This document shows, one piece after another, positions 1 to 6,485 of a stretch of 64,000 nucleotides of DNA. A model generated the notes under the pieces. It searched no databases, was not told the DNA's origin, and worked only from the letters and a program-made list of their open reading frames with translations. How positions within the stretch are numbered: position 1 is the stretch's first letter; each line of letters begins with the position of its first letter. The DNA is from Mycobacterium basiliense. GTDB taxonomy: Bacteria > Actinomycetota > Actinomycetes > Mycobacteriales > Mycobacteriaceae. A program made the translations under genes and the position numbers. Location: assembly GCF_900292015.1 (NCBI RefSeq), contig NZ_LR130759.1:1240001-1304000 (forward strand), given 5' to 3'.

Positions 1-3000
1 GGGGTGTTCGTTTTGGGTGGTGTGGATGAGGGCCCAGGTTGCGGCGTGGGCGAGGTTGGGGTGGGGGTCGTGGGGGCTGGTGGTGATGGCGTGGTGGGTG
101 AGGATGGCTAGGTGGGTGTGGGTGGTGTCGGGTCGGGTGAGCCAGTGTTGGAGTTGGGTCAGGGTGTGTTGGGTCAGGGTGTGGAGGTGTTGGAGGTCGG
201 TGGTGTTGGGGTGGGGTTGGGGGAGGGGCCAGATGAGGAGGTCGTGGTGGGTGAGGTCGGGGTGGGTGAGGTCGGGGTGGGTGGGTAGGTGGTTGAGGGT
301 GGGGGGTAGGTGGGGGTTGTTGGTGGTGTCGGGGGTGATGAGGGCCCAGTTGGTGTTGGGGGTTTCTGGGGTGTTGGGGGTGGTGGGGGGTAGGGCGGGC
401 CAGTCGAGGTGGAACAGGCTGTGGTGTGGGGTGGGGGTGGGTTGTTGGGGGGTGTGGGGTAGGTCGCGCAGGGTGAGGGTGGTGATGGTGATGACGGGTG
501 CGCCGGTGGGGTCGGTGGCGTGCAGGGTGTAGGTGTTGGTGTTGGTGCGGGTGAGTTGGGTGTGTAGTTGGGTGGCGGTGGTGGCGTGCAGGGTGATGCC
601 GGTTAGGGCGAAGGGGAGTGGGGTGGTGTCGGGGTCGGTGTCGGGGTGGGTGTGGGTGAGTGTGGTCAGGGGGTGTAGGGCGGCGTCGAGTAGGGCGGGG
701 TGGATGCCGTAGCCGGTGGTGGTGGTGTCGGGGGGTAGGGCGATGTGGGCGTAGATGGTGTCGGGGTTGGTGGGGGGGTGGTGGAGGGCGTGGACGTTTT
801 GGAAGGGGGGTTGGTAGTGCAGGCCGTGGGTGGCTAGTTGGTGGTAGAAGTCGTCGGGGTTGATGGGTTGGAGGGGGGGTGGGGTGTGGTTGGTGGGGGT
901 GGGGGGTTGGTGGGTGCTCAGGGTGGCGGTGGCGTGGAGGTGCCAGGGGTTGTGGTGGTCGTTGGTGGTGGTGCGGGTGTGCACGGTTAGGGGGCGTCGG
1001 TTGGTGTCGTCGGGGGGGTGGATGGTGATTTGGAGGTCGGTGGGGGTGTGTTCGGGCAGGGTGAGGGGGCTGTGCAGGATCAGTTCGTCGATGGTGGGGT
1101 AGTGGGTGTGTTGGCCGGCGTGGAGGAGTAGTTCGATGAGGCCGGCGGCGGGGAAGATGATGGTGTCGTGGACGCGGTGGCTGGCTAGCCAGGGTTGGGT
1201 GTGGGTGGAAAGTCGTGCGCTGAGGATGATTTGGTCTTGGTCGGCGAGGTCGGTGATGGCGCCGAGGAGGGGGTGGTCGGGGTGGTCGAGTCCGGCGGCG
1301 GTGATGTCGGTGGTGGTGGTGGGGGTGAGCCAGTAGTGGTGGTGTTGGAAGGGGTAGGTGGGTAGTTCCAGGGTGTGGGCGTGGGGGTAGAGGGTGGGCC
1401 AGTGGGGGCTGTGGCCGTGGGTGTGGAGTTGGGCCAGTGCGGTGGTCAGGGTGTCGAGGTGGGGGCGGTCGCGGTGGGTGGTGGTGATGACGGTGGATGC
1501 GGTGTTGGTGTGGTGGGTGAGGGTGTCGGTGATGGCGGGGGCCAGGACGGGGTGGGGGGATAGTTCGAGGAAGGTGTGTGGGCCTTGGGCCAGCAGGGTG
1601 GTGAGGTTGTCGGCGAAGCGGACGGGTTGGCGTAGGTGTTGGGTCCAGTAGTGCGCTGAGGTGAGTTGGTCGGGGGTGGCTAGTTGGCCGGTGAGGTTGG
1701 ACAGGATGGGCACGGTGGGTGGGTGCCAGGTCAAGGTGGTGGCGATGGCGTGGAATTCGGGTAGGGCGGGGTCCATCGTGGGGGAGTGGAAGGCGTGGCT
1801 GACGGGCAGTTGGGTGGTTTGGTAGTGCTCGGTGGTGCACCACTGGTGGAGGGCGTTGATGTCGTCGTGGGGGCCGGCGATCACGATTGAGGTGGGGCTG
1901 TTGATCGCGGCGATGGTGGTGTGGGGGTAGTGGTGGAGTTGGTCGGTGAGGTGTTCGGGGTTGGTGTGGATGGCCAGCATGGCGCCGGGGGTGCAGGTTT
2001 GCATGAGTCGGCCGCGGGCGGCGACGAGGGTGGCGGCTTGGGGTAGGGAGAGGACTTCGGCGAGGTAGGCGGCGGTGAGTTCGCCTAGGGAGTGCCCTAG
2101 TAGGTAGTCGGGGGTGATGCCGGCGTGGGTGAGTACGGCGTGCATGGCGGCCCCGTAGGCGAACAGGGCGGGTTGGGCGTAGGCGGTTTGGCCGAGTAGT
2201 TGGGCGGGGTGGGTGTCGGCGGGGGCGGTTAAGACGTCGTGCAGGGGGGTGTCGAGGTGGGGGTCGAAGGCGGCGCAGATGTGGTCGAGGGTTTCGGCGA
2301 AGATGCGGTGGTGTTCGTAGAGTTGGGCGGCCATGGCGGGGTATTGGGCGCCTTGGCCGGGTAGGACGAACACGATTTTTTTGGTGTGGGTTAGGTGGTG
2401 GCTGGCCAGGCCGGGGTGGGGGTGGTTGGTGGTGAGGGCGTGTAGTGCTTCGAGGAGGTCTTCGCGGGGGTTGTTGCTGGTGGTGGGGGTGGTGAGGGCG
2501 GCTCGGTAGGGGTGGTGGGTGCGGGTGGTGGCCAGGCTGTGGGCGAGGTCGGTGAGGTCGAGGTTGGGGTGGTCGAGTAGGTGGTGGTGTAGGCGGGCGG
2601 CTTGGGCGTGAAGTGCGGTGGGGGTGCGTGCTGATAGCGGCCAGATCCGCGGTGGGGGGTCGCAGGCTGGGGTGGTGGTGGGGGTGGGTGTGGTTGGTGC
2701 TGGGGTGGTGGGGGTTTGCAGGATGACGTGGGCGTTGGTGCCGCTGATGCCGAAGGAGGACACGGCTGCGGTGCGGGGGTGGTCGGTGTCGGGCCAGGGG
2801 GTGGGTTGGGTGAGTAGTTGTACGGTGCCTGCTGACCAGTCCACGTGGGGGCTGGGGTGGTCGACGTGCAGGGTGGGGGGCAGGGTGTCGTGGTTGAGCG
2901 CGCAGATCATTTTGATCAGTCCCGCGGCTCCGGCGGCGGCTTGGGTGTGGCCGAGGTTGGATTTGATTGATCCCAGCCATAGTGGGTGGGTGCGGTGGGG

Positions 3001-5855: not shown

Positions 5856-6485
5856 CTAGAAAAGATCGAGTGGGAAGTACTCGGAGACCACCACGGCCGG
5901 CTGGCCTTCGATGATCATCCGGTAGCGACGGCCAACGGTTTTCTGACGCAAGGCATGGTTCATTGCAGGCACCGCCCAACCGGGCGTATCGCCCATCCAG
6001 AATTCCGGCTTTTCCTTAAACAGTTCGAGGTGGCTGCTCGCCATGATCTCCCCAATTGGGCGCTTGGTTTGCTTCAGGTTTGCCTCGACGGAAGACGGTA
6101 AGAGGTCTATCGCGATCGATGAGTCCGCCGCGACGAACGGCCTTTCGGAAACCTTGCCTTCGAGGATTACCTTGCGTCGAAGTACTCGGCTATCGCCAAA
6201 TGCCTCGAACTGCGGCAATTCGGGTGACCTGGTCTCGATTGTTTGCTCGAGTACCCGTACCGCGACTTCTTCATCAATTAGCACACTTAGGATCCTGGTG
6301 AGAGTGCCGTTGGTGGCCAGGAGAATTCGAAGGTCGCGACTGAAGGCTCTGATTTCTTGTTCAGACAAGAGGCATCGCTGCGAGGGTTCGCCGTGTGTGA
6401 CGGGTCCCGGGGCGTCGTGATCGGCGCAGGCCGGCACCGCGACAGGGGCGTTAGAAGGCAGGAGTTGAGCGCTGTTGACGGTCAT
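5856..6485 (-). CDS. Chorismate pyruvate-lyase (Rv2949c-like), 4-hydroxybenzoate synthase
   Basis: 209 residues from the ATG at 6485, which follows an AAGGGGA ribosome site; an upstream in-frame ATG at 6662 lacks one. The protein resembles M. tuberculosis Rv2949c along most of its length: the LSEQEIRAFSRDLRILLATN segment, the central FVAADSSIAIDLLP block, the IGEIMASSHLE block and the C-terminal RRYRMIIEGQPAVVVSEYF. Rv2949c removes pyruvate from chorismate to give 4-hydroxybenzoate for phenolic glycolipids and p-HBADs. The gene ends 29 bp before the PKS start on the same strand, so the two are probably co-transcribed and this enzyme would supply the aromatic starter. The N-terminal 35 residues before the conserved region are longer than in Rv2949c and look unstructured. 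Confidence 0.87.
   Translation of the reverse strand: MTVNSAQLLPSNAPVAVPACADHDAPGPVTHGEPSQRCLLSEQEIRAFSRDLRILLATNGTLTRILSVLIDEEVAVRVLEQTIETRSPELPQFEAFGDSRVLRRKVILEGKVSERPFVAADSSIAIDLLPSSVEANLKQTKRPIGEIMASSHLELFKEKPEFWMGDTPGWAVPAMNHALRQKTVGRRYRMIIEGQPAVVVSEYFPLDLF

What the first reader, a model, noticed from the sequence alone, without database searches (positions are those of the whole stretch)
1..6485. Polyketide synthase primed by 4-hydroxybenzoate: fused FadD22-like loading module plus its own chorismate lyase
Seen: one gene with a benzoate-CoA-ligase-type adenylation domain, a carrier domain (Ser559), KS, malonyl-type AT and DH, 29 bp behind an Rv2949c-like chorismate lyase. Known: in the phenolic glycolipid pathway of M. 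tuberculosis, Rv2949c, FadD22 (ligase + carrier) and Pks15/1 are separate proteins doing exactly these steps. Inference: this locus is a compact, fused version that makes a 4-hydroxyphenyl polyketide, distinct from or additional to the PGL locus. I know of no described mycobacterial product for such a fusion.
Basis: partly seen in the sequence, partly recalled or inferred. Interest (0 to 1): 0.82.

Follow-up and report, generated by a model that had tools for sequence, protein, structure and literature searches.

The report
4-Hydroxybenzoate-primed PKS feeding an NRPS
A mycobacterium carries, besides the usual phenolic glycolipid genes, a second set that appears to start a modular assembly line from 4-hydroxybenzoate and probably hands the chain to a peptide-making machine, so the product would be an unknown phenol-capped lipopeptide.

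Summary
Observation confirmed. The gene (ATG at base 5826, minus strand) encodes a FadD22-type adenylation domain, carrier, KS, malonyl-type AT and DH, 29 bp behind a chorismate lyase. The genome also has the ordinary lyase-fadD22-pks15/1 locus, so this is additional. Beyond the window follow ER, KR, two more modules and a docking-like tail; as assembled, two frame breaks divide this into three ORFs (sibling modules 99-100% identical in DNA; nothing mended). In 396 Mycobacterium genomes 37 of 38 FadD22-type places have a lyase just upstream and the pocket motifs are nearly invariant: 4-hydroxybenzoate loading is likely. A second FadD22 lineage, fused to PKS (11 places, 8 genomes), goes with a hybrid PKS-NRPS cluster: its PKS1074 gene occurs in 6 of 396 genomes, all among those 8. 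The fused PKS lies beside at least one cluster gene in 5 of those 6, beside the NRPS itself in 2; in M. lacus the line runs into an NRPS. Best reading: front end of a 4-hydroxyphenyl-capped lipopeptide line with MmpS/MmpL export. Product, docking order and whether the window copy works are unproven. New variant of a known kind.

The parts
5856..6485 (-). chorismate lyase (Rv2949c-like), predicted to make 4-hydroxybenzoate from chorismate
   Evidence: Pfam PF01947 1.2e-16, PF04345 4.9e-06; 50% to the genome's PGL-locus copy; ATG and TAG checked
1..5826 (-). fused loading module plus first extension module of a modular PKS; runs off the window (open frame ends inside KR, about 1.4 kb beyond base 1)
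4384..5778 (-). FadD22-type adenylation domain
   Evidence: PF00501 and PF13193; FadD22 model PRK06060 944 bits, under its cut-off of 1228; pocket motifs
4042..4239 (-). carrier domain, Ser559 counted from the Met
   Evidence: PF00550 4.4e-08; Ser in 38 of 38 rows
2863..3981 (-). ketosynthase
   Evidence: PF00109/PF02801; DTACSS, EAHGTGT, NLGH
1411..2373 (-). acyltransferase, malonyl signature HAFH
   Evidence: PF00698, motif scan
442..1275 (-). dehydratase, with D in place of G in the H...G....P motif
   Evidence: PF21089/PF14765, motif scan
1..168 (-). start of the structural part ahead of ER and KR
   Evidence: PF22953
7204..8322 (+). alpha/beta hydrolase, possible cluster member; membership uncertain
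   Evidence: PF07859; beside cluster genes in M. riyadhense, M. angelicum and M. simulans, but relatives occur in 11 of 11 genomes searched
8440..10131 (-). PucR-type regulator, possible cluster member; membership uncertain
   Evidence: PF13556; relatives in 6 of 11 genomes searched, some beside cluster genes and some not

Best explanation
The chorismate lyase makes 4-hydroxybenzoate; the adenylation domain activates it as the AMP ester and loads it on the neighbouring carrier domain; three modules extend it. Read from the domains: module 1 malonyl with KR, DH and ER (3-(4-hydroxyphenyl)propanoyl), module 2 methylmalonyl with KR and DH, module 3 malonyl with KR and DH, which would leave a 7-(4-hydroxyphenyl)-4-methylhepta-2,4-dienoyl chain on the last carrier if every domain acts once. 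No release domain was found; the protein ends in a docking-like tail conserved in four species. The chain is then most likely passed, perhaps by way of the single-module PKS2207 and PKS1074 (KS-AT-ACP), to an NRPS with five adenylation domains and a terminal thioesterase, giving a 4-hydroxyphenyl-capped lipopeptide, possibly halogenated, exported by MmpS/MmpL and an MFS pump. Shown by sequence: gene content, domain order, linkage, co-occurrence. Inferred: substrate, order of the hand-overs, structure, export.
For: FadD22 type; solved relatives are led by benzoate-CoA ligases. Lyase upstream in 37 of 38 places; all 30 genomes with the A-carrier unit have a lyase. Modules and motifs. Tail conserved in the window species, M. 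riyadhense, M. simiae and M. angelicum. In M. lacus the ACP of this PKS line is followed by condensation and adenylation domains in one ORF, with a reductase domain in a later ORF. In G236 MFS, MMPL, PKS1074, NRPS, lyase, A-carrier and two PKS genes lie within 40 kb; in the window genome the NRPS end and the PKS end are 4.5 kb apart, convergent; in M. simiae and M. angelicum the PKS 3' end faces a P450 64% like the window cluster's (other P450s seen 29-31%); in M. riyadhense an MMPL 81% like the cluster's lies beside the PKS. PKS1074 in 6 of 396 genomes, all among the 8 with this lineage (hypergeometric 5e-12, ignoring kinship). NRPS, TE, MFS, MmpS.
Against: The window PKS frame is broken twice as assembled. 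Its A-carrier branch is long (0.44, second to G236), compatible with relaxed constraint. The DH motif is non-canonical in all three modules. PKS and NRPS are convergent, not one operon; in M. riyadhense they are 2.6 Mb apart. The PKS genes facing the tail in M. simiae and M. angelicum are only 57-58% like PKS2207, no closer than the genome's own Pks15/1 (59%), so that partner is not shown to be the same gene. In M. riyadhense and M. simulans only the first 700 or so residues of PKS1074 align at 71-72%. The MMPL family is near-universal (391 of 396 genomes; the sixth and seventh best scores, 1574 and 1562, are close). Two lineage-2 genomes, M. lacus and G113, lack PKS1074. The genomes may be close kin. 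G236's KS are not of the window type (68-69%). No product or activity is known.
Confidence: 0.55

Rival explanations
1. A stand-alone 4-hydroxyphenyl-alkenoate synthase: the three modules make a short phenolic acid that the neighbouring hydrolase or another enzyme releases, with no NRPS involved.
For: No release domain found in the PKS and a hydrolase nearby in the window and in M. riyadhense; in M. riyadhense the PKS lies far from the NRPS.
Against: Conserved docking-like tail in four species; PKS1074 only in genomes with this lineage; PKS running into NRPS in M. lacus; the hydrolase family is found in 11 of 11 genomes searched.
Confidence: 0.22
2. The window copy is a decaying pseudogene: the frame breaks are real and no product is made in this species.
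For: Two frame breaks as assembled; long branch; an apparent further break between the condensation ORF and NRPS4112.
Against: One break lies in a 3811-base match to a sibling copy with no substitution and a single gap, as expected of an error in near-identical repeats or of a very young change; the motifs looked for in A, carrier, KS and AT are intact; an unbroken 4551-aa relative exists in M. riyadhense.
Confidence: 0.25
3. A duplicate of the phenolic glycolipid pathway: a fused spare of FadD22-Pks15/1 that makes more hydroxyphenylalkanoate for PGL.
For: Same first two steps and 65% identity to the genome's own FadD22.
Against: Own Pks15/1 KS is only 66% like the window KS and the layout is modular; separate lineage in the tree; none of the ORFs scanned at this locus is a further PGL-type gene (not every ORF was scanned); the company is NRPS, MmpL, halogenase-like and P450 genes.
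Confidence: 0.07
4. The adenylation domain takes another aryl acid (benzoate, 3-hydroxybenzoate, salicylate).
For: Sequence alone cannot settle ring position; the best solved relatives are benzoate-CoA ligases.
Against: Pocket stretches match those of the discrete FadD22 enzymes, and the neighbouring lyase family gives 4-hydroxybenzoate (lyase product from PMC7205293, passages).
Confidence: 0.1

Closest known systems
Rv2949c - FadD22 - Pks15/1 of the phenolic glycolipid pathway
   Same: Chorismate lyase, 4-hydroxybenzoate-AMP ligase with carrier domain, PKS extension; gene order lyase then ligase.
   Different: Separate proteins and a PKS said to run eight to nine cycles (PMC7205293, passages read); here ligase, carrier and modules are fused, modular, with a different KS type and NRPS company. 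The genome has both.
Type I fusions of FadD22 with a Pks15/1-like module (M. cookii, M. aubagnense, M. mucogenicum, metagenome proteins of which about ten listed ones are named 4-hydroxyphenylalkanoate synthase)
   Same: A-carrier fused to KS-AT-DH-ER-KR-ACP (one of the 7 mapped loci ends at a contig end within DH); behind a chorismate lyase in the 7 mapped loci.
   Different: Single module, KS 64-68% and AT 38-43% to the window's; on the discrete-FadD22 side of the tree.
Mycolactone synthases (mls on pMUM plasmids; attribution of the plasmid hits to mls recalled)
   Same: Mycobacterial modular PKS; nearly identical sibling modules (99-100% DNA here; likeness in mls recalled).
   Different: 56.8-59.4% protein identity to the eight Mycobacterium plasmid hits listed; chromosomal; aryl starter.
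Hybrid lines primed with a chorismatase-made hydroxybenzoate (unantimycins, 3-hydroxybenzoate; PMC7170507, listing and abstract start only)
   Same: A chorismate-derived hydroxybenzoate primes a hybrid NRPS-PKS.
   Different: Streptomyces, 3-hydroxybenzoate, antimycin-type depsipeptide; no FadD22-type fusion known to me.

Membership tests
FadD22-type 4-hydroxybenzoate loading unit | adenylation domain that groups with FadD22 and not with fatty-acyl or amino-acid activating enzymes | tested here: met
   best NCBIfam match of the adenylation part is FadD22, 944 bits; 65% to own FadD22 against 24-32% to the other stand-alone ligase-like hits. The tree holds FadD22 relatives only and has no outgroup
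FadD22-type 4-hydroxybenzoate loading unit | score above the curated NCBIfam FadD22 equivalog cut-off (1228 bits) | tested here: not met
   944 bits, positions 1-633 of 705; own PGL-locus FadD22 scores 1371
FadD22-type 4-hydroxybenzoate loading unit | carrier domain with Ser directly behind the ligase | tested here: met
   PF00550; Ser in 38 of 38 rows
FadD22-type 4-hydroxybenzoate loading unit | chorismate lyase next to it | tested here: met
   29 bp upstream; 37 of 38 places in the genus sample, the miss on a 3.3-kb contig
FadD22-type 4-hydroxybenzoate loading unit | adenylates and loads 4-hydroxybenzoate | not testable with these tools
   no assay; pocket motifs conserved
PGL pathway | discrete FadD22 and Pks15/1 at the PGL locus | tested here: not met
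   fused modular gene at another place; the discrete set is at about 1765-1774 kb
Mycolactone-type synthase | near-identical modules | tested here: met
   99.0-100% over 1.4-3.8 kb in the larger matches
Mycolactone-type synthase | membership by sequence and plasmid location | tested here: not met
   56.8-59.4% identity; the gene lies in the single 5.6-Mb contig
Hybrid PKS-NRPS cluster | PKS carrier hands to an NRPS condensation domain | tested here: inconclusive
   domain order ACP-C-A within one ORF in M. lacus; in the window genome separate proteins and convergent genes
Hybrid PKS-NRPS cluster | partners conserved together | tested here: met
   PKS1074 in 6 of 396 genomes, all among the 8 with the lineage-2 unit; fused PKS beside at least one cluster gene in 5 of 6, beside the NRPS in 2 of 6; in the sixth the PKS contig ends. 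Kinship not corrected for

The most novel reading that the evidence does not exclude
A so far undescribed class of mycobacterial natural product: a 4-hydroxyphenyl-capped, possibly halogenated lipopeptide made by a split PKS-NRPS line in at least six species, with its own MmpS/MmpL exporter, so that mycobacteria use the PGL starter chemistry for a second, secreted or surface compound; in the window species its PKS modules are nearly identical through recent copying or gene conversion, as in the mycolactone genes.
Probability: 0.42. Interest if true: 0.78.

Novelty: new variant of a known kind. Interest (0 to 1): 0.62.

Why it matters
4-Hydroxybenzoate activation by FadD22 is known to me only from phenolic glycolipids. 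A second, separately evolving FadD22 lineage fused to PKS and tied to an NRPS would mean a second family of phenolic compounds in non-tuberculous mycobacteria and a simple genetic handle (delete the lyase) to find it. The near-identical modules offer another case for studying how mycobacterial PKS modules are copied and homogenised.

Tried and rejected
Rejected: that the fusion is unique to this genome (11 lineage-2 places and 7 type I fusions among 38). Rejected: that it replaces the PGL-type locus (both are present). Not decided: which protein docks to which; N-terminal stretches were only looked at by eye, and some rows of that script read a wrong start or frame. NRPS amino-acid specificities were not derived. 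Whether the frame breaks lie in single-letter runs was planned (a comment in the script) but not run. The tree labels disc_simulansC3 and disc_G236 were wrong: both run into KS. Tree by the quick method, no bootstrap, no outgroup. No structure prediction was run. Behind the type I fusion of M. aubagnense an ORF 40% like an NRPS piece was seen (L111:6263) and not followed up. The species was not identified; M. spongiae, met in the literature, has 5,581,157 bp, this genome 5,607,630. References starting at base 5829 (and the like) begin one codon before the ATG (found); no conclusion changes.

Literature, held library only. Among the papers listed (15 of 33, 15 of 193) no title or abstract start named a FadD22-PKS fusion or a 4-hydroxybenzoate-primed mycobacterial PKS-NRPS. 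PMC7205293: passages. PMC11361433: section 7 and passages; its unknown PKS and PKS-NRPS regions were not compared with this cluster.
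Full report
1. What is there. On the minus strand a chorismate lyase (5856-6485) is followed after 29 bp by a gene starting at ATG 5826 that runs off the window. Pfam finds adenylation, carrier, KS, AT and DH domains in that order. The adjoining DNA shows that the open frame goes on through ER and ends inside KR (2404 aa as scanned from one codon before the Met), followed by an ORF of 3300 aa (rest of KR, ACP, KS, AT, DH, KR, ACP, KS, AT, DH) and one of 415 aa (KR, ACP, tail). 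So there are three extension modules in three ORFs with two frame breaks as assembled.

2. The modules. The larger matches between sibling modules are 99.0-100% identical in DNA over 1.4-3.8 kb; one 3811-base match has no substitution and a single gap. This points to very recent copying or gene conversion and makes assembly errors plausible. In M. riyadhense the two modules are 75.8% alike over 4.1 kb, with a 1.05-kb stretch at 99.6%. AT signatures are HAFH, YASH and HAFH for modules 1, 2 and 3, and the KS motifs are present in all three; the DH motif has D for G in all three. ER is seen in module 1 only. Signature meanings are recalled.

3. The starter. The adenylation domain is nearest to FadD22: 944 bits to the FadD22 model (cut-off 1228, so below it), 65% to the genome's own FadD22, 24-32% to the other stand-alone ligase-like hits. 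The best solved relatives are benzoate-CoA ligases. Among 396 Mycobacterium genomes, 38 places in 30 genomes match at E <= 1e-120 and 43 lyase places lie in 32 genomes at E <= 1e-20. 37 of 38 A-carrier places have a lyase directly upstream (gaps 29-326 bp); the miss lies on a 3.3-kb contig. Six lyase places have no A-carrier unit beside them, and two genomes (G028, G090) have a lyase only. In the 38 rows FAYGLGN is invariant; DG.GSTEVGQTF.S is invariant at the letters shown except T (36 T, 2 S). I take 4-hydroxybenzoate loading as likely (about 0.88), not shown.

4. Two families of fusion. The tree of 38 A-carrier rows (quick method, SH-aLRT only, no outgroup) splits, at 97, 11 rows (window, M. 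riyadhense, M. simulans twice, M. angelicum twice, M. simiae twice, M. lacus, G113, G236; 8 genomes) from 27 rows (20 discrete FadD22 and 7 fusions to a Pks15/1-like module). All 11 run on into a KS, but in six of them only as far as a contig end, an unread stretch or a frame change allows, in one by 17 residues only. KS identity to the window is 77-85% in those with more than that, except G236 (68-69%). In the protein search the two best hits are lineage-2 fusions (M. riyadhense, M. angelicum), and 35 of the 120 listed hits (of 661 at E <= 1e-200) carry a FadD22-type domain.

5. The partner genes. Convergent to the PKS lies a block of about 56 kb: PKS2207 (KS-AT-DH-ER-KR-ACP), MmpS- and MmpL-type genes, a Trp-halogenase-family gene, an MFS transporter, a condensation ORF with NRPS4112 (4 A domains, TE), PKS1074 (KS-AT-ACP), NRPS5833 (5 A domains, TE), a P450, a haem-oxygenase-like gene and a DUF5078 gene; the NRPS end and the PKS end are 4.5 kb apart. 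Mapping these proteins on other lineage-2 genomes: G236 has MFS, MMPL, PKS1074 (52%), NRPS, lyase, A-carrier and two PKS genes within 40 kb. In M. simiae (contig C140) and M. angelicum (C28) the 3' end of the fused PKS (tail match) faces a P450 (64% to the cluster's) and a PKS 57-58% like PKS2207, which is no closer than Pks15/1 (59%). In M. riyadhense the PKS sits with an MMPL (81%), hydrolase and PucR, while PKS2207 (70%), P450 (73%), NRPS (69%), PKS1074 (69%), MFS (71%) and halogenase-like (80%) genes sit 2.6 Mb away. In M. simulans the PKS contig ends inside KS. So the fused PKS lies beside at least one cluster gene in 5 of 6 genomes and beside the NRPS in 2 of 6.

6. Co-occurrence. PKS1074 relatives at E <= 1e-290 (lowest listed 1038 bits; the best others in ten genomes reach 866) occur in 6 of 396 genomes, all among the 8 with the lineage-2 loading unit; in M. 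riyadhense and M. simulans only residues 15-704 or so of 1074 align. The hypergeometric value, 5e-12, ignores kinship; read it as description. M. lacus and G113 have the loading unit without PKS1074. In M. lacus the line continues through an ACP into condensation and adenylation domains in one ORF, with further NRPS pieces and a Male-sterility-type reductase domain in later ORFs, although it is broken into several ORFs as assembled. This is the clearest sign that the family feeds an NRPS.

7. Mechanism. Lyase to 4-hydroxybenzoate, adenylation and loading, three modules, then transfer by the conserved docking-like tail (four species), perhaps through PKS2207 and PKS1074, to NRPS5833, release by its TE, export by MmpS/MmpL and MFS. 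The first two steps rest on close homology, the rest on gene content and linkage. NRPS4112 with its own TE could make another peptide; I did not settle whether the other genomes have a counterpart.

8. Verdict. Observation confirmed, interpretation partly right. It is neither the PGL pathway nor, by sequence, a mycolactone synthase. The listings seen in the held literature showed no description (searches named in Tried and rejected). New variant of a known kind; interest 0.62.

Noticed in passing
G000:C1:532927-542697 (L029:7927-17697, minus): A 3256-aa protein with N-terminal AMP-binding domain, ACP, KS (82% to the window KS), methylmalonyl-signature AT, DH, ER, KR, ACP and about 460 further residues that look like an acyltransferase by eye; a fatty-acyl-primed cousin by guess.
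   Followed up: partly
L086-L090 (Mycolicibacterium and others): Type I fusions with about 460 residues behind the ACP; the one scanned (L086) matched no Pfam family there at 1e-7, and many listed relatives lack this part.
   Followed up: partly
L111:6263 onwards (M. aubagnense): An ORF 40% like an NRPS piece lies about 12 kb behind a type I fusion, so type I loci may have NRPS company too.
   Followed up: no
L092 (M. lacus): The fused PKS is broken several times; two of the breaks are in-frame stops between KS and AT of successive modules.
   Followed up: no
L024:2556-14894 and L024:1456-2574: A second NRPS with four A domains and its own thioesterase; a truncated condensation domain lies in a separate overlapping ORF ahead of it.
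   Followed up: partly
window 3970-6485: The lyase and the A-carrier part have 58-60% G+C, against 67% for the PKS part and 65.5% for the window.
   Followed up: no
window 12000-13808: A succinate-dehydrogenase-like ORF (named by eye) with a short tandem repeat (IGADKE three times) near its C-terminus.
   Followed up: no
window 16202-16298: ARAGORN calls a tRNA-Leu inside the long ORF 15284-16582; probably a false call.
   Followed up: no
G064:C1:1982948, G023:C5:236736, G057:C25, G158:C110, G090:C12, G028:C85: Six chorismate lyase genes of the same family with no FadD22-type unit beside them.
   Followed up: no
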